From contig JAJDWE010000031.1 in the NCBI GenBank assembly GCA_022825725.1, forward strand, positions 1 through 64,000: DNA of 64,000 bases. Direction: 5' to 3'. Numbering within the stretch: position 1 is the first letter of the stretch; each line of letters opens with the position of its first letter. A program made the translations under genes and the position numbers. The notes below the pieces were generated by a model. That model was not told the DNA's origin. It worked only from the letters and a program-made list of their open reading frames with translations, and made no database searches. The DNA is from Gemmatimonadota bacterium (GTDB lineage Bacteria; Gemmatimonadota; Gemmatimonadetes; Palauibacterales; Palauibacteraceae). Positions 24,546-49,019 of the stretch are shown here, piece by piece.

Positions 24546-25681
24546 GCCGACACCCCGCCGTACACGCCGCGCGTCACCGTTTCGCCGCGGGGTGCGGCAC
24601 TCTCACGGCTCGCCAGAGCCTCGCTTGCGGCCTGCTCGATCTCCGCCTCCACTTCCCGCTCCACCAATGCGAGCTTCCGGAGGTTCCGGTCCCGCAGGCT
24701 GCCGGTGCCGGCGACTCCGAGGTCGATCCCTGCGAGATATTCTTCATAGAGTCCGATCGGGTCGCGCCGCCCCCAGTGCCCGAACAGCTCGCGCGAAAAG
24801 ATGGCGCGGGCCTCGCGCACGTCGTGCGTCGCGTGCCCTCCCATGCGGAAGGTGCGCGCCTCGATGAGTTGCGGACCCTCTCCCCGCCGGCAGCGTTCGG
24901 CGGCCACCCGCGTTGCCGCGTAGACCTCGAGCACGTGGTTCCCGTCCACCGATTCCGAGGGGATCCCGTACGCCGCGCCCCAGGCCGAGAAATCGGGCGG
25001 CACGTGGTGCTGGTCCAGCCGCGTGCCCAGCGCCACCTGGTTGTTCTGGATGATGAAGACGATCGGCAGCCCGAGCGATGCCGCGAAGGCGAACGCCTCG
25101 TGCGCCTCGCCGTGTTTCGTCGCGCCGTCTCCGACCCAGGTCAGCGCCACGCGGGGCTCTCCGCGAATCCGGAACGCGAGGGCGAACCCGTTCATGACCG
25201 TCGCCAGCGTGGCGACCATGCTGATGGGCGGACACACGCCGTAGCGCAGATCTCCCAGGTGCAGATCCCGCCCCTCCGCGGGGGCGTCCGCCGTCCCGAG
25301 GTAGGTGCGGAACACCTCCGCCATCGGCATGCCCATCTCGTGGTTCGCGCCCTGGTTGCGGATCATGGGACCCACGATGTCCCCCTCGGAACCGCGGCGA
25401 TCAAGCGCGTTCACCGCGCCCACCGTCACGGCTTCCTCTCCGGTACCGAGCCACGCCTTCGAGATCACGCCCTGCTTCACCCACCTCGTGAGCGCGATAT
25501 CGCTGAGGCGGAAGCGGAGGAGTCCCCGATACAGGGCGAGGTACGCTTCGGGAGGGAGCGCGGCAATCTCCCTCTCGCGGGCGTCGTCCGCCCGGATGCG
25601 CGACCTGTACTCCTCGAGGAGTTCGGGGTCCGGCTGCCAGGAGACGTACTCAGGGGGGTCGTAGGCCGAGTATCGACGCAT
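24542..25681 (-). CDS. Thiamine-diphosphate-dependent 2-oxoacid dehydrogenase E1 component, alpha subunit
   Basis: A 379-residue E1-alpha of the pyruvate/branched-chain 2-oxoacid or acetoin dehydrogenase type. The ThDP motif is Gly-Asp-Gly-Ala-Thr-Lys-His-Gly-Glu through Asn-Asn-Gln, and a Phe-Arg-Met-Gly-Gly-His-Ala-Thr-His-Asp loop matches the phosphorylation-loop region of these subunits. The first segments (Arg-Phe-Arg-Leu-Ser-Asp, Thr-Gly-Glu-Glu-Ala) fit. No E1-beta, E2 or E3 gene is adjacent, which is unusual. I chose the ATG at 25681 with GAGGA 9 nt upstream; the frame extends 18 codons more. Confidence 0.88.
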   Translation of the reverse strand: MRRYSAYDPPEYVSWQPDPELLEEYRSRIRADDAREREIAALPPEAYLALYRGLLRFRLSDIALTRWVKQGVISKAWLGTGEEAVTVGAVNALDRRGSEGDIVGPMIRNQGANHEMGMPMAEVFRTYLGTADAPAEGRDLHLGDLRYGVCPPISMVATLATVMNGFALAFRIRGEPRVALTWVGDGATKHGEAHEAFAFAASLGLPIVFIIQNNQVALGTRLDQHHVPPDFSAWGAAYGIPSESVDGNHVLEVYAATRVAAERCRRGEGPQLIEARTFRMGGHATHDVREARAIFSRELFGHWGRRDPIGLYEEYLAGIDLGVAGTGSLRDRNLRKLALVEREVEAEIEQAASEALASRESAAPRGETVTRGVYGGVSA

Positions 25682-25743
25682 CGTCCAGGTCCTCGTGGTC
25701 CGGCAGGCCGGAAAGCGGCCCGTCGCGCGGCACATCCTAAGCC

Positions 25744-25771
25744 TTCGCCACGGACCGCGCGAACCGATAAT
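25744..25771 (+). promoter_or_regulatory. Promoter candidate for the DUF4159 gene
   Basis: In the divergent gap 25,682-25,862, TTCGCC (25744-25749) is followed after 16 nt by GATAAT (25766-25771), one mismatch from the -10 consensus. It would start transcription about 85 nt before the DUF4159 ATG. Only the -10 is convincing. Confidence 0.35.
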
Positions 25772-25862
25772 CTACGGGTGAGCCACCACGCGGCCGAAGT
25801 GCCGCGCCATGCGACCGAGGCGTCAAGATGAACCCAGGTCGAGCCCTCGCGGAGGAGTTCGT

Positions 25863-26666
25863 ATGAAGCCGTGCCGGCGCTGCCGGTGCAACGTGCCGGA
25901 CGCGACGAAAATCTGTCCGCATTGCCGCGCCCCGCAGCGGCGCGGCGACCGCACGCCGCAGGTGGTGCTCGGATTCGTCACGGTCGCCGCCGCCGCGCTC
26001 GCCGCGCTCGGGTCCTGTCCGAGCCTCGCCGGCCAGCCGCCGGGCGGGTCATTGCGGACGGAGCCGCCGACGATCGCACGCCTGCGCTACGACGGCGGGG
26101 GCGACTGGTACGCGAACCCCTCGAGCCTCGACAACCTCCTCGAGCAGATCCGGTCCCGGACGGGGATTCCGGTCGCCGGCCGGCCCGCGGAGGTGGGCGC
26201 CGCGGATCCCGACCTCGCCGACCACCCGTACCTGTACGCGACGGGACACGGGAACATGTCCTTCACGGCGCTCGAGATCGAACGCCTGCGCGCCTACCTG
26301 TACGGGGGCGGCTTCCTCCACGTGGACGACAACTACGGCCTGGACGAGTCCTTTCGCCGGGAGATCGCCCGCCTCTTCCCGGACCTTCCCCTCGCCGAAG
26401 TACCGCTCGAGCACAGCATCTACCGGATCTTCTACGAGATGCCGGACGGCCTGCCCAAGATTCACGAGCACGATGGGAATCCCGCGCAGGGGTTCGGCAT
26501 TTTCCTCGATGGCCGCCTCGCGGTTTACTACAGCTTCGAATCCGATCTGGGGGACGGCTGGGAGGATGAGGGCGTGCACGGGGACGCGCCCGAGATACGG
26601 GAGTCCGCAATCAGGATGGGCGTGAACCTCTTCCTCTACGCGCTCTCCGCGACCCCCGCCCGCTGA
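25863..26666 (+). CDS. DUF4159-domain protein with N-terminal zinc ribbon and membrane segment
   Basis: A 267-residue protein. Residues 1-25 carry Cys-Arg-Arg-Cys and Cys-Pro-His-Cys, a small zinc ribbon; a hydrophobic segment (about 35-55) follows, and the rest is a DUF4159 domain with Leu-Arg-Ala-Tyr-Leu-Tyr-Gly-Gly-Gly-Phe-Leu-His-Val-Asp-Asp-Asn and His-Ser-Ile-Tyr. DUF4159 has a glutamine-amidotransferase-like fold and is common in predicted envelope clusters. The ATG at 25863 is 5 nt after GGAGGAG; a longer frame from 25809 lacks such a site. It is the only plus-strand gene between 1 and 48 kb. Function unknown. Confidence 0.85.
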   Translation: MKPCRRCRCNVPDATKICPHCRAPQRRGDRTPQVVLGFVTVAAAALAALGSCPSLAGQPPGGSLRTEPPTIARLRYDGGGDWYANPSSLDNLLEQIRSRTGIPVAGRPAEVGAADPDLADHPYLYATGHGNMSFTALEIERLRAYLYGGGFLHVDDNYGLDESFRREIARLFPDLPLAEVPLEHSIYRIFYEMPDGLPKIHEHDGNPAQGFGIFLDGRLAVYYSFESDLGDGWEDEGVHGDAPEIRESAIRMGVNLFLYALSATPAR

Positions 26667-26702
26667 AGGCGCGACTGCCCGACACCCGCTGACGGGCCGA
26701 CA

Positions 26703-26999
26703 TCAGGCGCCGAACTTGCCGAAGATCGCCATCAATCCGACCACGATGGCGGTGGCGATGAAGACCCCCCAGGCGAAGATGGCCGTGAGGACCGGGCCGT
26801 CGGATTTCAGGTGCATGAAGAACATCGCGACGAGCGCGAACTTCGCCGCCATCATCACGAGGAGGATCGGAATGAGCACGGGGGCGAGCGCCTCGATGTA
26901 GAACACCATCACTTCGAGCGCCGTCAGCGCGGCGAGGATCACCGCGATGGCGACGTAGAGGCGCGTGCTCGGGTGCGATTCGGCGGAGTGGCGGCTCAC
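26703..26999 (-). CDS. Cytochrome c oxidase subunit IV
   Basis: Small membrane subunit of 98 residues of the caa3 oxidase. Three hydrophobic helices are visible: one from Tyr-Val-Ala-Ile-Ala-Val, one from Leu-Ile-Pro-Ile-Leu-Leu-Val containing Ala-Lys-Phe-Ala-Leu-Val-Ala-Met-Phe-Phe-Met-His-Leu-Lys, and one at the C-terminus. The Phe-Met-His-Leu-Lys pattern is typical of bacterial subunit IV. I chose the GTG at 26999, 7 nt after the subunit III stop. Confidence 0.88.
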   Translation of the reverse strand: MSRHSAESHPSTRLYVAIAVILAALTALEVMVFYIEALAPVLIPILLVMMAAKFALVAMFFMHLKSDGPVLTAIFAWGVFIATAIVVGLMAIFGKFGA

Positions 27000-40641: not shown

Positions 40642-41937
40642 TCATGTGATCAGCTTCTTCTTCTTCGCGGCCGGGAAGAGGACGTTGTTGAGGATCAGCC
40701 GATAGCCGGCGGAATGCCGGTGGAGGTCCAGATCGGTCGGGGCATCGCCGATGAGGTGGCGAGGGTCTTCCGGGTCGTGGCCTCCGAGGTAGGTGAAGGT
40801 GCCCTCGCCGAAGCTCCCGTGCAGGTACTTCACGCGTCCGCGCGCATCCTCCTCCGCGAGCACCGTGACGCCCGGCTGGAGACGTTCCCGGCGAAACGTC
40901 GTCGTGAGGCCGTAGAAGTCGGGCAGCACGCGCCGATGGTTCTGGGTCAGCATCGCCGGAACGGGATCGAATTTTGCGCTGAACTCGAACAGCGAGAAGC
41001 TGCCGAGATCGACCCTCCACGGAGTGTTCACCTGGTGCCCGTCGATATCGCTGAAGGCGCTGAGCGTGGGGTCCGTCACGAGGACGGCATCGCGGAAGGC
41101 GAGAGCGTCCGGCCAGTGGAGCTTTTCGCTTGCCGCCGCATCGGGAGGCGATCCGTCCGCGAAGGAGGCGGCGATGTCGGTCCCCGCCGCGGCGAGGGCG
41201 AGTTCCAGCGTTTCCGTCGCCGTGCACATGGCAAACAGGAAACCGCCCCCCTCGATGTAGCTCCGGAGTCGGGCCGCGACGGCCTTCTTCAGGGCCGGGA
41301 CGTTCGGATACCCGAGTTCGCGCGCGATCGCCTCGTTGCGCGCGACTTCCTCCTGCAGCCAGGCCGCGGAAGCATAGGTCAGGTAGAACTTCGAATACTG
41401 CCCGGTGAAGTCTTCGTGATGGAGGTGCAGCCAGTCGAAGTTCTCGAGTTCCTCGGAGAGCACCTCACGGTCCCAGATCTGCTCATAGGGAATCTCGGCG
41501 TATTCGAGCGCCATCGTCACGGCATCGTCCCACGGCGAGCTGTTGGGCGGCGTGTAGACCGCGATCGTGGGCGCCTTCTCCAGGGGCACGGTTTCCATGT
41601 TCTGCGTCTCGATCTCGCGGCGGATCCTCGCCACGTCGGAACCGTCGAGCGTCTCCACGGTGACACCCATGAGCGCGGCTCGCCGACGGTTGGACGGTGC
41701 GTCCGACACGAGAAAGGACCCGGAGCGGTAATTCAGGAGCCATTCGGCCGACTGGCCCGCCGAGAGCGCGCCGAACACGTACCCGTAGGCCTTGAGGTGG
41801 TTCTCCTGTTCGCGGTCCATGGGGACGAGAAGCTGCGCTCCGAGCCCCGAGGCGCCCGCGAGCGAGGCGAGGCCCGCCAGCAGGAAGCGGCGCGCGAGGC
41901 GGCGCCGAACGCGGCATCGTTTCGTCTCGGCCTTCAT
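40642..41937 (-). CDS. Secreted protein of the family often labelled 'asparagine synthetase B' (amidotransferase-like fold)
   Basis: A 431-residue exported protein with an Arg-rich N-region and hydrophobic signal ending near Gly-Ala-Ser-Gly-Leu-Gly-Ala-Gln. The mature part begins Leu-Leu-Val-Pro-Met-Asp, then His-Leu-Lys-Ala-Tyr-Gly and Glu-Trp-Leu-Leu-Asn-Tyr-Arg-Ser-Gly-Ser-Phe. A later segment, Leu-Arg-Ser-Tyr-Ile-Glu-Gly-Gly-Gly-Phe-Leu-Phe-Ala, resembles the glutamine-amidotransferase-like core also seen in the DUF4159 protein of this window. From memory, databases call this family asparagine synthetase B, but I see no synthetase motif and would not trust that name. 4-nt overlap with the TPR gene. 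Confidence 0.72.
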   Translation of the reverse strand: MKAETKRCRVRRRLARRFLLAGLASLAGASGLGAQLLVPMDREQENHLKAYGYVFGALSAGQSAEWLLNYRSGSFLVSDAPSNRRRAALMGVTVETLDGSDVARIRREIETQNMETVPLEKAPTIAVYTPPNSSPWDDAVTMALEYAEIPYEQIWDREVLSEELENFDWLHLHHEDFTGQYSKFYLTYASAAWLQEEVARNEAIARELGYPNVPALKKAVAARLRSYIEGGGFLFAMCTATETLELALAAAGTDIAASFADGSPPDAAASEKLHWPDALAFRDAVLVTDPTLSAFSDIDGHQVNTPWRVDLGSFSLFEFSAKFDPVPAMLTQNHRRVLPDFYGLTTTFRRERLQPGVTVLAEEDARGRVKYLHGSFGEGTFTYLGGHDPEDPRHLIGDAPTDLDLHRHSAGYRLILNNVLFPAAKKKKLIT

Positions 41938-43757
41938 CGGCCTCCTCCATCCAGTTCGGCGAGCATGCGGCGCGCGACCGGCGCCAGGGCGCTCCGCGGA
42001 TACCCCACGATGAGCTGTTCGAGCCAGGAAGCGGCGGCGGCGGGCGCGGACGCGCGTGCAAGATCCAGGAGAGCCGCGGGGGCCTCGGGGCTTCCCGGGT
42101 GCTGAAGAACGATCTGGCGCCGCAGGGCGTCGGCGATGCGGGCCTGCCCGGCCGCGGCGGCCGCGTCCGCGAGGAAGCTCAGAACAACGGACCGGCCGCT
42201 CGATGCCGGCCGGCCGGCCAGGTCGCGGAGCGCCGGACTCGGATCGAACACCTCGGGAGAGGCGAGGAGGCCGAGGGCGGCGGCGCCCACGATGCGGATC
42301 TCCGCCGTGTCCGCCGCCTGCACCAGAGTCAGCAGCTGGAGTCGCCGCGTGCGTTCGGCCGCTCCGATCTCCGCCTCGCGGACGCTCCGGCTCGCCCGCT
42401 CCCGCGCCGAATCGGGCCGGCCCGCGTACAGCGCCAGCCGCGCCGCCGCGGCGTCGAGCCGCCCCGACGAGGCGACGCGAATCCGTTCCCGCGCGTCCGC
42501 CACCAACGTCTCCGCCGTGTCGAGATCGCCAGCCCGGGCGTGGCCGAGCGCGAGCTCCCCCCGCATCCCGGCCTCGGCCGTCGCGGAGTCCGGGTATTGC
42601 CTCACATAGCGGTCCAGCACCGAGGCCGCGTCATCGAGCGAGGCGGGGTTGGCCGCGAGAAGGCCGAACAGGCGGCGCGACGCCAGCTGATGAGGACCGT
42701 CACCGGGAGTGCTCTCGCGCATCAGTGCCTCCAGCACGCCTCGCGCCGACGCCGTATCTCCCGCGGCCAGCGCCTGGTCGCCGGAGAGCGCGAGCCAGCG
42801 CAGGCGGTCCACCGATCGCGCGCTCAGGTCGACGAGCCGCCGCGCGGCCCATGCGATCTCGCCGGGGAGCACCGCCGCCTCCGCTTCGCGCACGTACTCC
42901 CGCAGGAAAGCGGCGGCTTCGGTATCGTCCGGCGTTGGCGCCGCCTCGACCAGCGCCCGGGCCGCCGCTGCACGCCCCAATCGCAGCGCGAGGATGGCGC
43001 CCGCCCGGGACGCCCGGTCCCGCCGATCGGCGAGGCGCGCGCGCAGCCGCTCGAAGGAGGCCGCATGGGCGCCGGACCCTTCGGCCCCGGTCGCCCGGAG
43101 GCCCGCTTCCACCTCGTCCGTCGCCGGCGGCGTGAGAGCGAGAAGTCCGACCCAGGCCGCGGCCAGGCGATCGCCGTCCCCGACCGCGAGGAGGAGGTCG
43201 GCGAAGCGCGCGAGGAGTTCCCTGCCGGGGTCTGCCGCGTCGTCGAGCGTCCGGATCGCCCCTGCCGAGTCCCCCGCCGCGAGCTGGACGTCGGCGCGGC
43301 CCAGCCGCGCCGCGGAGAGTTGAGGGGCCTCCTCAAGCCAGCGGTCGCTCACGGCGAGGGCCGAATCGAGCATCCCCGCCCCGGTCAGCCCCCGCACCCA
43401 CCACAGCCGGGCGATCTCCCCGTCAGGCGCCGCGACAACCGCGGCTTCGGCGTACGGCACGAGCGCGGCGGACTCACCCGACTCCAGGGCCAGTTCGCCG
43501 AGCAATTCGAGCGCACGCGCCGACGCGGGCGCCCGATCGAGGTGCTCGCGCAGGGCGGCAGCGGCTTCCTCGGTCCGCCCGCTCGCGCGAAGGCGCTCCG
43601 CACGAGAGACCGTGCGCTGCTCCGAGGCCGCGGATGCCTGACCGGCCACCTCGAAGCCCGTCGGCAGCTGGGCGCCGCAAGCCGCCGCAAGGAGCGCAAC
43701 CATCCTCATGGCGCCGGGGATCCTGCCGCGGGGGAACCGGAAACGGGGACGGCTCAC
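41934..43757 (-). CDS. Exported TPR-repeat protein
   Basis: A 607-residue alanine-rich protein of tandem helical pairs with the TPR rhythm (for example Ala-Arg-Ala-Leu-Glu-Leu-Leu-Gly-Glu-Leu-Ala-Leu, Arg-Leu-Gly-Arg-Ala-Asp-Val-Gln-Leu). The N-terminus has a basic part and a hydrophobic stretch ending Leu-Leu-Ala-Ala-Ala-Cys, a possible lipobox. Start is GTG at 43757, just after the DUF4175 stop, or ATG at 43709. TPR proteins of this type usually scaffold envelope complexes; partners here are unknown. Confidence 0.75.
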   Translation of the reverse strand: MSRPRFRFPRGRIPGAMRMVALLAAACGAQLPTGFEVAGQASAASEQRTVSRAERLRASGRTEEAAAALREHLDRAPASARALELLGELALESGESAALVPYAEAAVVAAPDGEIARLWWVRGLTGAGMLDSALAVSDRWLEEAPQLSAARLGRADVQLAAGDSAGAIRTLDDAADPGRELLARFADLLLAVGDGDRLAAAWVGLLALTPPATDEVEAGLRATGAEGSGAHAASFERLRARLADRRDRASRAGAILALRLGRAAAARALVEAAPTPDDTEAAAFLREYVREAEAAVLPGEIAWAARRLVDLSARSVDRLRWLALSGDQALAAGDTASARGVLEALMRESTPGDGPHQLASRRLFGLLAANPASLDDAASVLDRYVRQYPDSATAEAGMRGELALGHARAGDLDTAETLVADARERIRVASSGRLDAAAARLALYAGRPDSARERASRSVREAEIGAAERTRRLQLLTLVQAADTAEIRIVGAAALGLLASPEVFDPSPALRDLAGRPASSGRSVVLSFLADAAAAAGQARIADALRRQIVLQHPGSPEAPAALLDLARASAPAAAASWLEQLIVGYPRSALAPVARRMLAELDGGGR

Positions 43758-43758
43758 G

Positions 43759-46700
43759 TCAGGGCTCTCGCCGGGCCTCGGCGCCTGCCGGGGGCACCCG
43801 GTTCAGCCGGTCGAAATACTCGAAGATCAGCGATCGATAGAAGAGCGGCAGCTCCCGGAGCAGGGCCTCCGAGGGTGTCGGGTAGCGGCGTCCCCGCAGC
43901 AACCCCGGATCGATGGGCGGTGGAGCCCCCGGCGGGGCCGTGGCTTCGCGCGACTCCCGTTCGTTGGGGTCGAGATCCTCATCCTCCAGCGAGCGCCCGG
44001 CGTCGAGCATTCGCCGGAAGAGTTGCCGCTGTCGTTCAAGCGTCTCCTGCGTGGGTCCTTCCAACTCGAGCTGCTGTGCAAGTTCAGCCGCCTCCTCCGC
44101 CAGCTCCTCGGGACGTCCCAGGAGATCGCCCTCCGGGTCTTCCAGCTCTCCGAGCTCTTCGGCGACCTCCTCCTGCCGCCGCGCGATCTCCTCGCGTCGC
44201 CGCTCCTCTCCGGACGGCCGCGGGCCGGGCATGAGAAGCGAACTCGTCTCCTGCGTCACGGCCTGCTGCTGCTGCGCGAGCTGGTTCATCTGATCCGCCG
44301 CGTCCTGGCCGGCGGACTCCTGCCCGGCCGCACGCGCCGCTTCCTCGCTCGCCAGGAGATGTCGGGCCAGCGAGTTCAGCGACTCCTGGATGCCCTCGAC
44401 CTCCGCCCGGGACGGGAGACGCCGCGCACCATCGCCTGCGAGCCGGTCCAGCAGCTGATCCATGCGGGCCGCCGCCTCGCCCGCCGCCGCTCCCGTCCGC
44501 TGGTCCAGCATGGCGGCTTCGTTCCCGGCCTCCGAGAGTCTCTCGACCAGATTCTCCAACCCCTGGCGCACAGCGCCCTGCCGCGCACGCCAGGATGCCG
44601 GATCCGCGGCATTCTCGCCGCGCGTCGCCTCCGAAAGGCGGCCCTCCTCTTCCGACAGCGCGAGCGCCTCGCTGCGCGCGCGGGCCAGCGACTCGACGGC
44701 GGCCTCTCCCTGCTCCCCGCTCATCTCCCGCTGCGCCGAGCCGAGGGCACCCGCCGCCTGTTCGAGCGCCTCCGCGGCCTCCTCCGCCGCCTGCCGCTCC
44801 GTTTCGCCGACCTCGCCCGGCGCCCCGGATGGGGACTGCTCGGCTCCGCTCTGCGCGTCGGCCATCTTCCCCAGGGCCTCCTGCGTGCGCTCACCGGCGG
44901 CCCGTGCCGAATCCGCCGCCGCCTCCCGGTCCGCCGCCGCAAGCTCCGCCTCCAGCTCCGCCAGACGCTCCGCCAGCGCTTCGGCCTGTTCGACGAGCGC
45001 CTCCTGACCTTCCTGGAACGCCTCGGAATCCGTCTCCCCGGCCACGTCCCTCTGCTCCTGCGCCAACTCGTCCGCGTTGGCCTGTGCCGACTTCATCGCC
45101 TGTTCGAGCGCAGCCTGCTCGAGCATTCCGAGCGTCTGGTCGACCTGCTCCCGAAGATTTTCGTAGTCCCCGGCGAGCTGTTCGAGCGCTTCCCGGACCG
45201 CTTCCGGGTCCAGCTCCCGCAACGCTTCCGCGAGCGCCTCGATCTGCTCCTCGAGTCCGCTCTCGGACAGCTCCTCGTAACGTTCGGCCAGACGCCGCAA
45301 CTGCTCCTGCAGCGCCGGGTCGGAGAGCGGCGAGGCTTCGAGTTCCTCCTGAAGAGCCTGGAGCTGCTCCTCGACGCCCTCGAACTCCTCCTCCGACCGT
45401 TGCGCTTCATCGAGCACGCTCCGCGCCTCTTCCGTGGCCTCGAACCGGACGTCCTCGCTGTCGTCCCCCTCGGCATCCGTCTGCCGGGCCGCGTCGGCCG
45501 CCGCCTCGGCCAGCGCCTCCAGATTCTCCTCCAGGGCCTGCGCCGCTTCGGACAAGGCCTCGGTCTGATCCGCGCGCTGATCCCGAATCTCCGTGAAGGT
45601 CGGAACGCGAAGCAGAAAAACGTCTGAAAGCGCGGGCCCCCTGGCCGGGTGTCCGTCGAAGGCCTCGAAACGGTAGAACAGCGTGTCCCCGGGAAGGAAG
45701 GACTCCGCGCTGCGGTCGAGCAGGTGCCGGAAGACGGCCCGCGCGGCCCCGGCGGGGTCGGGGGAAAGCGCCTCCCGCCGCTCCGCGCTTTCGCTGCCCA
45801 GCCCCGAGCGCCAGCTGCGGACAAAGGCGCGGCGGAGGCCGATATCGTCCTCGATGTCCACGATAACCGGCATCACGCGCTCGTAGCCCAGGGTCGTATC
45901 CGGTGCGGGATAGAGGAGGTGGATGCGCGGCTGGAGATCGGGGACGACGAGCACCCGGATCGGGTCCGGGGCGATGGGCGCGCCCAGCGACGACTCCGCC
46001 CGAAGTTCCCACGCCCAGGCGCCCGTCCGCTCGGGGACCCACGACGCGGCGAACTGCGACCCTGCGACCTGGAGCGGGATTCGGGCTGCCACCTCGCCGG
46101 TCTCGCCGTCGCCGGGCTCCCATGCGAGGGCCCCGTCATCGAGTGGGAGGTTCGTTTCACCGCTCAACCGCAACGTCGTACCCTCCGGCGCCACGAGCGG
46201 CGGAATCCGCCCGCGGTAGCGCTCCGATCCGCGCCCGAGATAGGCCGGGAACTCGACGGTCAGCTGGAGATCCTGGACAAGAAGCGGCTCGAGGGGACGG
46301 ACGCGCAGGGTGTCGCTCGAAAAGCCCTCGGCGTCTTCGGCCCACACCGCCGTGGGAGAGATGATCGGGGCGGTGCGGCCCTCCGCCGAACCGGCCGCCG
46401 ATACATCGAGCAGGATCCGTTCGGGCGCCCGGCCCGCCGCGCGCCACACCAGGTCGACCCGGTCGCGGCCAGCGGCCGAGATCGACACCACCGCCGCATC
46501 TCCGCGCGGCACGCCGGTCTCGCCGGTCACGCCGAGGGGGGGGAGCGGCGCCGGGAAGGCTGTGCGCCACGGCGCGCCCAGCGCCGCGGCGGCGGAGAAG
46601 GTAGGCTGCGGCCGCAGCAGGGCGGCGACGGAGGTCGCGAGCAGCATGAGCGCCACGGCAACGCCCGAACGGCGAATCCGCCGCTTCCATCCCGAGCCGG

Positions 46701-47124
46701 TGACCGGCAGGAGCCCGCGCGACGCCGCACTCCCCAGCGCCTCGGATACGCGCGTGCGGTGGAGAGCGGCCAATCCGGCGCCCGCCGCCGCCTCCGCCCC
46801 TTCCAGTTCGATCGCGGAGCGCACATCGCCGGCCCCCAGGCCCGCTGCAGCGTCCGCCTCCTCCGCCACCGCGTGCGGATGCAGCGCGTGCCAGACGCGG
46901 CGGGCGATCCACACGAGCCCGGCGAGGCCGGCCCACAGCACGAAGGCGAGGGCGAGCGGAACGAGCGAGCCACGGCCCTCCCGGACGGAAACCGGAAGCA
47001 GGGAAAGGACGAGGATCAGCGCTCCACCCAGCGTGACGGCTGAAGCCGCCGCCGTCCCGGCGACGCGCGCCCGGGCCGCTGCGCAGGCGGCGGTCAACCG
47101 TTCGAAGCCGAATCCGTCACTCAT
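43759..47124 (-). CDS. DUF4175-family membrane protein with giant coiled coil
   Basis: A 1,121-residue protein. Two transmembrane helices lie near the N-terminus (about residues 25-80) and a third near 155-175; Ig-like beta segments fill 200-500, then about 500 residues of Glu/Ala/Gln-rich heptad coiled coil with runs such as Gln-Glu-Glu-Leu-Glu. The C-terminal 60 residues have Gly-Arg-Arg-Tyr-Pro-Thr-Pro and Tyr-Arg-Ser-Leu-Ile-Phe-Glu-Tyr-Phe-Asp. This architecture matches DUF4175. ATG at 47124 overlaps rsmI by 4 nt; the longer open frame is a shadow. It probably spans the periplasm. Confidence 0.82.
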   Translation of the reverse strand: MSDGFGFERLTAACAAARARVAGTAAASAVTLGGALILVLSLLPVSVREGRGSLVPLALAFVLWAGLAGLVWIARRVWHALHPHAVAEEADAAAGLGAGDVRSAIELEGAEAAAGAGLAALHRTRVSEALGSAASRGLLPVTGSGWKRRIRRSGVAVALMLLATSVAALLRPQPTFSAAAALGAPWRTAFPAPLPPLGVTGETGVPRGDAAVVSISAAGRDRVDLVWRAAGRAPERILLDVSAAGSAEGRTAPIISPTAVWAEDAEGFSSDTLRVRPLEPLLVQDLQLTVEFPAYLGRGSERYRGRIPPLVAPEGTTLRLSGETNLPLDDGALAWEPGDGETGEVAARIPLQVAGSQFAASWVPERTGAWAWELRAESSLGAPIAPDPIRVLVVPDLQPRIHLLYPAPDTTLGYERVMPVIVDIEDDIGLRRAFVRSWRSGLGSESAERREALSPDPAGAARAVFRHLLDRSAESFLPGDTLFYRFEAFDGHPARGPALSDVFLLRVPTFTEIRDQRADQTEALSEAAQALEENLEALAEAAADAARQTDAEGDDSEDVRFEATEEARSVLDEAQRSEEEFEGVEEQLQALQEELEASPLSDPALQEQLRRLAERYEELSESGLEEQIEALAEALRELDPEAVREALEQLAGDYENLREQVDQTLGMLEQAALEQAMKSAQANADELAQEQRDVAGETDSEAFQEGQEALVEQAEALAERLAELEAELAAADREAAADSARAAGERTQEALGKMADAQSGAEQSPSGAPGEVGETERQAAEEAAEALEQAAGALGSAQREMSGEQGEAAVESLARARSEALALSEEEGRLSEATRGENAADPASWRARQGAVRQGLENLVERLSEAGNEAAMLDQRTGAAAGEAAARMDQLLDRLAGDGARRLPSRAEVEGIQESLNSLARHLLASEEAARAAGQESAGQDAADQMNQLAQQQQAVTQETSSLLMPGPRPSGEERRREEIARRQEEVAEELGELEDPEGDLLGRPEELAEEAAELAQQLELEGPTQETLERQRQLFRRMLDAGRSLEDEDLDPNERESREATAPPGAPPPIDPGLLRGRRYPTPSEALLRELPLFYRSLIFEYFDRLNRVPPAGAEARREP

Positions 47125-47966
47125 TCCGAGGGCGCCTCTTGAACCTGCAAGCTCACGCGGTAGGCCTCGTTCCGGCTCAGACCGAACTCCGTAGCCAGAC
47201 GGTCGGCGATCTCGCGCCGCCGCAGGCCATCGCGCGACCAATGTCGCGCCTCTTCCATCAGGACCGCCAGATCGGGCGCTTCGTTGCCTGCCTTGCCTTC
47301 CCCGAACACGATCGTCACCTCGCCCCTGACCTCGCGCGTCGCGAACGCCGACGCCAACTCGCGCACGGATCCGGCCGTCGTCTCCTCGTGCAGCTTCGTC
47401 AGTTCCCGACAGACGACGGCCGCTCGCTCACCCAGGCCCGCTTCCGCCAATTCGTCGAGGAGTGCGACCAGCCGCCCCGGCGCCTCGAACGCGACCGCGG
47501 TGTCCACGCATGACCGGAGGCTGTCGATCCAGACGGAGCGTTCGCGGCCCCGCCGTGGCGCGAATCCGAGGAAATGAAACCGGTCCGCCGGAAATCCGGA
47601 CACGGAGAGCGCCGCCAGCACGGCGGAAGGACCGGGTACGGCAAGCACCTCGTGCCCCGCCTCGCGGGCGGCGGCGACCGCCCGGAAGCCGGGATCGGAC
47701 ACGGTCGGCGTTCCCGCGTCGGACACGAGGGCCGCGGAGCCTCCCCCTGCGAGGGCCGCGAGCAACTCCTCCACCCGTGCGCGCTCGTTGTGCATGTGCA
47801 GCGACCGCAACGGGACGTTCGCCTTTAGCCGCGCGAGCAGCGTACCCGAGCGCCGCGTGTCTTCCGCGTAGCACACATCCACAGAACGCAGAATCCCGAT
47901 TGCACGCCGCGGCATGTCGTCCAGATTGCCGATCGGCGTGCCGACCACGTAGAGCGTTCCCGTCAC
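47121..47966 (-). CDS. rsmI: 16S rRNA (cytidine1402-2'-O)-methyltransferase
   Basis: SAM-dependent tetrapyrrole-methylase-fold enzyme that methylates the ribose of C1402 in 16S rRNA. Signatures are Val-Gly-Thr-Pro-Ile-Gly-Asn-Leu, Tyr-Ala-Glu-Asp-Thr-Arg-Arg-Ser, and Val-Ser-Asp-Ala-Gly-Thr-Pro near residue 85. I chose the GTG at 47966 (281 residues, Val-Thr-Gly-Thr-Leu-Tyr-Val-Val), with GAGG 9 nt upstream; an ATG 19 codons earlier has no such site. Confidence 0.93.
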
Positions 47967-48071
47967 GACACGCGTCCTCGTTTCCCGTTCGCCGCCCGAT
48001 GCGCCCGCGCCCCCCGGAGCCATCAGGACCGGGGGGCGCGAAGTGGGGCTGGACAGTAGCGGCGCCGCTCC

Positions 48072-48584: not shown

Positions 48585-49019
48585 GTGAACCAAGGCAACC
48601 GTATTCCGGGCGCGCCCATTATCGACCACGTGGGAATCGCGGTCAACTCGCTTCAGGAAGCCGTGCCGCGGTGGTCCGCCGTCCTGGGCCAGCCGCCGTC
48701 CGGGGAGGAGACCGTCCCATCGGAGGGCATTCGGGCCACCTTCTTCGGCGAGGGCTCCGGGCGGATCGAGTTGCTCGCTCCCCTGACCCCGGAGTCGCCC
48801 ATCGCCCGTTTCCTCAACCGGCGCGGCCCCGGCATCCACCACATCTGCGTCTGCGTCGACGATCTCGAGGTGGCCCTCGCGGAAGCCGAAGCGGCGGGCG
48901 CGGAAGCCATACCGCCCCGGATCCGCGTCGGTGCCGGCGGCGCCCGCATCGCGTTTCTGCATCCGCGCTCGCTGAAGGGCGTTCTCCTGGAGATGCGGGA
49001 GGATCCCGAGGGCGGGTGA
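48585..49019 (+). CDS. mce: Methylmalonyl-CoA epimerase
   Basis: Vicinal-oxygen-chelate enzyme of 144 residues interconverting (S)- and (R)-methylmalonyl-CoA. It has Ile-Ile-Asp-His-Val-Gly-Ile-Ala-Val (metal His), a Phe-Phe-Gly-Glu-Gly-Ser-Gly-Arg-Ile-Glu-Leu segment, His-His-Ile-Cys-Val-Cys-Val-Asp-Asp and a final Gly-Val-Leu-Leu-Glu metal glutamate. GTG start; the open frame upstream is non-coding. It supplies the mutase at 12-13.6 kb with its substrate isomer although far from it. Confidence 0.93.
   Translation: MNQGNRIPGAPIIDHVGIAVNSLQEAVPRWSAVLGQPPSGEETVPSEGIRATFFGEGSGRIELLAPLTPESPIARFLNRRGPGIHHICVCVDDLEVALAEAEAAGAEAIPPRIRVGAGGARIAFLHPRSLKGVLLEMREDPEGG

What the first reader, a model, noticed from the sequence alone, without database searches (positions are those of the whole stretch)
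25863..26666. DUF4159 domain fused to an N-terminal zinc ribbon
The protein starts with two CxxC pairs, then a membrane segment, then a DUF4159 domain with the motif Leu-Arg-x-Tyr-x-x-Gly-Gly-Gly-Phe-Leu. The same motif occurs in the secreted 'asparagine synthetase B' protein at 40.6-41.9 kb, so the two may share a fold and perhaps a system. The zinc ribbon would be on the cytoplasmic side. It is the lone plus-strand gene in 48 kb.
Basis: partly seen in the sequence, partly recalled or inferred. Interest (0 to 1): 0.5.

Follow-up and report, generated by a model that had tools for sequence, protein, structure and literature searches.

The report
Zinc ribbon fused to relocated DUF4159
In a genus of uncultured Gemmatimonadota bacteria a tiny membrane zinc-finger protein has become fused to an exported protein of unknown function, which had left its ancestral gene neighbours yet tends to be kept or lost together with them, pointing to an undescribed cell-envelope module.

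Summary
In detail: ORF 25863-26666 (267 aa) has C4xxC7/C18xxC21, one hydrophobic segment (34-52) and a DUF4159 domain (E 6.4e-65). LRxYxxGGGFL is also in P0002 (40642-41937), and both models have the class I glutamine amidotransferase/ThuA-like fold.

New is the history. Outside this family, DUF4159 sits between rsmI and P0003, upstream of a TPR gene and P0002: 22 of 22 loci; 72 of 73 compatible (L199 is the exception). Here that row stands at 40.6-48 kb without DUF4159. The gene moved beside cytochrome oxidase genes and, in 14 of 17 genomes of the genus, is fused to a ribbon-membrane miniprotein. In genus g5 this is a separate 52-aa gene overlapping the DUF4159 start (3 genomes), or stands alone without DUF4159 (3 genomes).

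DUF4159 and P0002 stay coupled: both 162, neither 27, discordant 9 of 198 genomes.

Best reading: an exported DUF4159 subunit of an undescribed four-protein envelope module, now exported through the ribbon's helix. Whether signal peptidase separates the ribbon, and what the module does, are open.

The parts
25851..25857 (+). Shine-Dalgarno-like GGAGGAG before the ATG at 25863
   Evidence: sequence; present in 5 of 13 fused relatives
25863..25952 (+). Zinc ribbon, residues 1-30: C4xxC7, C18PHC21, Arg-rich end
   Evidence: A1 ribbon profile E 9.1e-30 (the window was a row of A1); pLDDT about 91, 91, 77 per ten residues; dN/dS 0.27
25962..26018 (+). Membrane helix, residues 34-52
   Evidence: hydropathy; dN/dS of residues 31-52 0.13; low model confidence at residues 31-57
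26016..26042 (+). Residues 52-60 CPSLAGQPP; possible signal peptidase I site after Ala56 (26030/26031)
   Evidence: invariant in 13 of 13 except Ser54 (12 of 13); cleavage is inferred from the -3/-1 rule (recalled)
26070..26645 (+). DUF4159 domain, residues 70-261
   Evidence: PF13709 E 6.4e-65; 4i66 Z 26.4, rmsd 1.5, 185 residues; dN/dS 0.075
40642..41937 (-). P0002, exported ThuA/GATase-like protein with invariant Cys238
   Evidence: model and fold search; co-occurrence
41934..43709 (-). TPR protein of the same row
   Evidence: Pfam TPR on 41934-43757; gene row
43759..47124 (-). P0003, large membrane protein with long coiled coil, related to a DUF4175 protein of the same genome
   Evidence: no Pfam family at E<=1 except a DUF6317 match below cut-off; 27% over 392 columns to L078:14175-17738, E 2e-11, which matches DUF4175 E 1.7e-10; gene row
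47121..47966 (-). rsmI (TP_methylase); its end overlaps the P0003 start by 4 bases, where the relatives have DUF4159
   Evidence: Pfam E 1.1e-30 on 47121-48023; gap analysis

Best explanation
The gene is a lineage-specific fusion. Shown by comparison: a 51-58-aa protein made of a zinc ribbon and one membrane helix, found with strong scores only in this order, is joined in frame to a DUF4159 gene that has left its usual place between rsmI and P0003 and now lies between the E1-dehydrogenase and cytochrome oxidase genes. Inferred: the ribbon helix replaced the signal peptide of DUF4159 and carries it across the inner membrane, N-terminus inside. Inferred: the DUF4159 domain keeps its old job as the exported subunit of a four-protein envelope module with P0003, the TPR protein and P0002. 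DUF4159 has a GATase-like fold with Asp where the catalytic Cys would be, so it is more likely a binding or metal-dependent partner than a glutaminase; P0002 keeps an invariant Cys at that place and an HxPE motif further on and is the likelier enzyme. The ribbon adds a cytosolic zinc site of separate origin.
For: Separate, overlapping and fused states in relatives: 14 fused, 10 separate in the family, 4 separate in the sister family; GTGCTGA overlap in G012, G013, G015. DUF4159 between rsmI and P0003 in 20 of 22 loci outside the family, after rsmI at a contig end in the other 2; in a second set of 73 loci 70 have rsmI upstream and 2 more have P0003 downstream at a contig end. Absent from that place in 5 of 5 family loci holding both flanks. 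Joint presence/absence 162/27 against 9 discordant of 198; within the family, where the genes lie apart, G007, G010, G011, G014 and G016 lack both. In G010 (one contig) rsmI is followed by c25, without P0003, TPR and P0002, and the ribbon stands alone at the oxidase site. Purifying selection on ribbon and helix. Fold and invariant residues: Asp156 61 of 61, Cys238 61 of 61.
Against: No expression, topology or interaction data. Ribbon dN/dS (0.27) is well above that of DUF4159 (0.075), and the link to the rest of the module is not shown for the ribbon: G010, G011 and G014 keep the ribbon without DUF4159, so it has a use of its own. One locus outside the family, L199, has DUF4159 without rsmI, P0003 or P0002 nearby. 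Genomes are related, so Fisher's p (1.4e-24) overstates independence; family f8 lacks both throughout the sample. P0003's own N-terminal half was found in only 153 of 198 genomes, fewer than P0002 (169), perhaps because it diverges fast. In the DUF4159 tree the split genus g5 is not the resolved sister of the fused genus.
Confidence: 0.7

Rival explanations
1. Processed precursor: ribbon plus helix act as an unusual signal peptide. Signal peptidase I cuts after Ala56, leaving a 56-aa ribbon miniprotein in the membrane and a free periplasmic DUF4159 protein, so one ORF yields the two ancestral products.
For: Residues 52-60 (CPSLAGQPP) are nearly invariant in 13 of 13 while residues 61-66 vary; S54-x-A56 fits the -3/-1 rule (recalled); the 56-aa product would match the 52-58-aa free ribbons. 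In the distant fused relative G030 the sequence CPGAASATT offers A-S-A. Unfused relatives begin with signal-peptide-like stretches.
Against: The hydrophobic stretch (about 18-19 residues) is long for a signal peptide; A-x-A-like triplets are common in this composition (69 of 74 relatives had one in the window tested), so the motif is weak evidence; no cleavage data.
Confidence: 0.3
2. The ribbon part is not normally translated; DUF4159 starts at residue 34 (GTG here, ATG in most relatives) with an ordinary signal peptide, and the upstream frame is a leftover.
For: Met34 in 11 of 13; weak ribosome sites before the first ATG in most relatives.
Against: Ribbon dN/dS 0.27, all four Cys invariant, good ribosome site in the window, free-standing homologues; no ribosome site seen before codon 34 and no positive charge between Met34 and the helix (by eye).
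Confidence: 0.1
3. The fused protein is a lipoprotein, cut before Cys52 and lipidated there (LGSC).
For: LGSC is invariant in 13 of 13 close relatives.
Against: The fused relative G030 has VETC and the free ribbons of the family have ETC, EAC, ESC or EGC at this Cys, which do not fit a lipobox (recalled); in g5 the Cys is the last residue, so its conservation has another cause.
Confidence: 0.08

Closest known systems
DUF4159 (Pfam PF13709); solved member 4i66, Hoch_4089 of Haliangium ochraceum
   Same: Whole domain matched by sequence (E 6.4e-65; 4i66 E 3.6e-27 with the A2 profile) and by fold (Z 26.4)
   Different: N-terminal ribbon and membrane helix, seen only in this genus among 150 collected DUF4159 ORFs (25 rows, 14 genomes)
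Class I glutamine amidotransferase / ThuA-like fold
   Same: Next best fold matches of the P0001 domain (Z about 8-10) and best ones of P0002 (Z about 10-12 over residues 121-426)
   Different: DUF4159 has Asp at the nucleophile position; P0002 keeps a Cys there but is a 431-aa exported protein without a sequence match in the PDB worth the name (best E 0.38)
MoxR-DUF58-BatA (Bat-type) operons
   Same: A paralogous DUF4159 gene of this genome lies beside MoxR-like AAA_3, DUF58, BatA and a DUF4175 protein related to P0003
   Different: The row of the window and of the class has no MoxR, DUF58 or BatA gene among the neighbours seen
Small zinc-ribbon families (Zn_Ribbon_1/3, DZR, UPF0547)
   Same: CxxC-CPHC ribbon; weak matches, best E 2.8e-5 to 1.3e-4, in 4 to 14 of 15 ribbons
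   Different: Fixed 51-58-aa ribbon-plus-helix protein with its own conserved residues, strong only in this order

Membership tests
DUF4159 (PF13709) | Match over the curated cut-off along the whole model | tested here: met
   218.9 bits against 25.9, model 1-202 of 202
DUF4159 (PF13709) | Fold of the solved member | tested here: met
   4i66 Z 26.4, rmsd 1.5 over 185 residues
Class I glutamine amidotransferase (enzyme) | Cys nucleophile at the elbow, in DUF4159 | tested here: not met
   Asp156 in 61 of 61 after strand 151-155
Class I glutamine amidotransferase (enzyme) | Cys at the elbow, in P0002 | tested here: met
   Cys238 in 61 of 61 after strand 233-237
Class I glutamine amidotransferase (enzyme) | Cys-His-Glu triad geometry in P0002 | tested here: inconclusive
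   H387 and E390 invariant, distances not measured: no coordinates were available
MoxR-DUF58-BatA (Bat) operon | MoxR, DUF58 and BatA genes in the row | tested here: not met
   None among the window genes of 40.6-52.8 kb scanned with Pfam; met only for the paralogue row L078
DUF4175 (PF13779), for P0003 | Match over the curated cut-off | tested here: not met
   No match at E<=1; only its paralogue L078:14175-17738 matches, E 1.7e-10, 40 bits against 27.3
Zinc ribbon | Two CxxC knuckles in a ribbon fold | tested here: met
   Four Cys invariant in 15 of 15, strands at 2-3, 10-11 in the model with pLDDT about 91
Zinc ribbon | Binds zinc | not testable with these tools
   no experiment

The most novel reading that the evidence does not exclude
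The fused ORF is a two-in-one precursor: a zinc-ribbon membrane protein that doubles as the signal peptide of an exported DUF4159 protein. The DUF4159 product belongs to an undescribed envelope module in which one GATase-like protein (P0002) keeps the nucleophile and the other (DUF4159) has replaced it by Asp.
Probability: 0.25. Interest if true: 0.6.

Novelty: new variant of a known kind. Interest (0 to 1): 0.45.

Why it matters
No paper in the library searched mentions DUF4159, so its role is open. The conserved row and the joint presence and absence of DUF4159 and P0002 name the partners to test; that the link persists where the genes lie apart is stronger than operon membership alone. The fusion also shows, in living relatives, separate, overlapping and fused states of the same two genes, and how a gene with its own signal peptide may take over the membrane helix of a neighbour.

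Tried and rejected
Direct sequence homology of P0001 and P0002: 12 residues and 16 hhalign columns at 39%; not accepted as proof. NCBIfam gave nothing for P0001 or P0002. A sigma-70 scan of 25600-26850 found no promoter. P0003 as a DUF4175 member: no Pfam match itself, though its paralogue is one. The 77-aa partner of the sister family's ribbons was sought in 35 family genomes and not found; the search had no positive control. P0003 (153 of 198) was not used for the co-occurrence count because it diverges fast. A ribbon remnant in G034 is too short to claim. Trees leave the order of juxtaposition and fusion open; G029 fell out of the DUF4159 tree; G030 and G034 are unresolved in the P0002 tree, so a secondary ribbon loss in G034 is possible.

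Literature, search listings only, no paper opened: DUF4159 0 papers; Palauibacter 7; Hoch_4089, 4i66 or DUF4175 1; MoxR with DUF58, von Willebrand and glutamine amidotransferase 0; MoxR with aerotolerance and BatA 7; zinc ribbon with transmembrane, gene fusion and Gemmatimonadota 0. The library lacks most subscription journals.

Choices behind counts: DUF4159 'present' means best E<1e-50, so G083 (1.6e-40) counts as absent. The nine P0002-negative genomes not printed were deduced by elimination. The 2x2 numbers were read by eye and typed into. The nine discordant genomes have 250 to 830 contigs each. The dN/dS set is 13 of 14 fused genomes, G030 left out, two of the 13 nearly identical. A1 holds 15 ribbons (5 fused, 10 separate). 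A2 holds 69 rows (10 fused, 8 ribbons, 48 other orthologues, 3 paralogues) out of 82 non-redundant DUF4159 ORFs plus extra fused rows; A3 holds 61 of 63 non-redundant P0002 relatives. One search used 22 of 23 fetched loci with orthologues outside the family; the one left out (L075) was added and agrees. The sets share some genomes.

Full report
WHAT IS THERE. The plus-strand ORF 25863-26666 encodes 267 residues (P0001) from an ATG with GGAGGAG five bases upstream. Residues 1-30 hold two CxxC pairs, 34-52 is the strongest hydrophobic stretch, and 70-261 match DUF4159 at E 6.4e-65. Its neighbours are a minus-strand E1-dehydrogenase gene and minus-strand cytochrome oxidase genes. By my gene caller it is the only plus-strand gene up to 48.58 kb (the next is a glyoxalase).

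ORGANISM. The relatives found in named records are nearly all titled Gemmatimonadota MAGs and include Candidatus Benthicola.

THE RIBBON IS A FUSED MINIPROTEIN. With P0001 as query, full-length in-frame matches appeared only in the same genus; in sister genera residues 1-55 or so matched a separate short ORF. In genus g5 this is a 52-aa protein (MKECQSC...LAETC) whose TGA stop lies inside GTGCTGA, where GTG is the likely start of DUF4159 in another frame: G012, G013 and G015. In G010, G011 and G014 of the same genus the ribbon stands alone and neither DUF4159 nor P0002 is found. In genera g2 and g4 a 58-aa ribbon lies elsewhere. Fifteen aligned ribbons share C4, C7, C18, C21 and a fifth Cys at the end of the helix; the four ribbons of family f2 are 51 aa and lack the fifth Cys. 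A profile search found strong matches (E<1e-15) in 28 of 198 class genomes, all of this order: 14 fused, 10 separate in the family, 4 in f2; 23 further genomes gave only weak matches. A phylum-wide draw of 200 added two weak ones. Of 150 collected DUF4159 ORFs, 25 rows from 14 genomes, all of the genus, carry the ribbon. Three of 17 genomes of the genus lack the fusion: G029 and G034 have DUF4159 without a ribbon, and in G033 no orthologue was found. In 13 of the fused genes dN/dS is 0.27 for the ribbon, 0.13 for the helix, 0.55 for the linker and 0.075 for DUF4159.

DUF4159 MOVED. In 22 loci outside the family DUF4159 follows rsmI in 22, and P0003 follows in 20; the two others end there. A second set of 73 loci outside the family (72 named contigs and L075) gave rsmI upstream in 70, P0003 downstream at a contig end in 2, and one exception, L199. 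Further members of the row are a ClpC-like ATPase, a 157-aa protein and thioredoxin upstream, TPR and P0002 downstream. In the window the row stands at 40.6-52.8 kb without DUF4159, and rsmI and P0003 overlap by 4 bases. Five of five family loci holding both rsmI and P0003 have no DUF4159 between them.

THE LINK SURVIVES. In 198 class genomes DUF4159 and P0002 are both present in 162, both absent in 27, and discordant in 9 (2 with DUF4159 only, 7 with P0002 only). The 27 fall in 17 genera and 7 families. Fisher's p is 1.4e-24 but ignores kinship. Within the family, where the genes lie apart, G007, G010, G011, G014 and G016 lack both; G002, G003, G005 and G033 are discordant. G010 is one contig: rsmI is followed by c25, with P0003, TPR and P0002 missing there, P0003 and P0002 not found elsewhere in it, and only a distant DUF4159 paralogue left. 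The TPR gene was not searched genome-wide. The ribbon is still there, so the ribbon itself does not follow the module.

FOLD. P0001's model has mean pLDDT 85.7, about 91 in the ribbon, above 85 in most of the domain, under 50 at 31-57. It matches 4i66 at Z 26.4 and then class I amidotransferases at Z about 10. P0002's model (86.2) matches ThuA-like and amidotransferase-like domains at Z 10-12 over residues 121-426. The shared LRxYxxGGGFL is the helix and strand before the elbow; the next residue is Asp156 in DUF4159 and Cys238 in P0002, each 61 of 61. H184, D228 and E234 of DUF4159 are also 61 of 61 and might bind a metal (inference).

PARALOGUES. The own genome has two more DUF4159 genes. One (L078) lies next to a MoxR-like AAA_3 ATPase, DUF58, BatA and a DUF4175 protein. 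The DUF4175 protein is related to P0003 over 392 columns at 27% (E 2e-11). DUF4159 and P0003/DUF4175-like proteins thus occur together in two different rows of this genome, which supports a working pair.

HOW IT WORKS. Shown by comparison: fusion, changed place, co-retention, fold. Inferred: N-in topology, export through the ribbon helix, partnership with P0003, TPR and P0002, P0002 as the enzyme. Open: whether the ribbon stays attached, and what the module does. The most novel reading, a precursor cut after Ala56 into ribbon protein and exported DUF4159, is favoured by the conserved CPSLAGQPP but its motif is common enough to stay at low odds.

VERDICT. A well-supported gene fusion in a known domain family with an undescribed gene module behind it: new variant of a known kind, interest 0.45.

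Noticed in passing
L203, L204, L205, L206 (family f2): In four of four f2 loci the 51-aa ribbon-helix gene follows, with a start overlapping by 4 bases, a 77-78-aa gene for another CxxC ribbon with two hydrophobic-looking segments: a coupled pair of zinc-ribbon membrane miniproteins. Not found in 35 genomes of the window's family (no positive control).
   Followed up: partly
L078 (G000:C24:10001-29500): A MoxR/DUF58/BatA row with a vWA-GATase-like protein, a TPR protein, a paralogous DUF4159 and a DUF4175 protein related to P0003.
   Followed up: partly
L212 and L043 (G010): In a one-contig genome P0003, TPR and P0002 are missing between rsmI and c25, and DUF4159 is missing from the oxidase site where the ribbon remains: a natural double absence.
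   Followed up: partly
L048, just upstream of the DUF4159 ORF (G034): After GGAGG a short frame reads MKRCTTYGYES then stop, perhaps a remnant of a lost ribbon.
   Followed up: no
L187, L198: Two contigs titled Gammaproteobacteria carry the Gemmatimonadota row rsmI-DUF4159-P0003-P0002 with 66% identical DUF4159; the records are probably mislabelled bins.
   Followed up: partly
L199 (contig titled Gemmatimonas phototrophica isolate): DUF4159 orthologue without rsmI, P0003 or P0002 within the 17.5 kb held: a second relocation or an assembly error.
   Followed up: no
window 48585-49019 (+): A glyoxalase gene facing against the row is kept at this place in many class loci; it ends the stretch in which the finding is the only plus-strand gene.
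   Followed up: no
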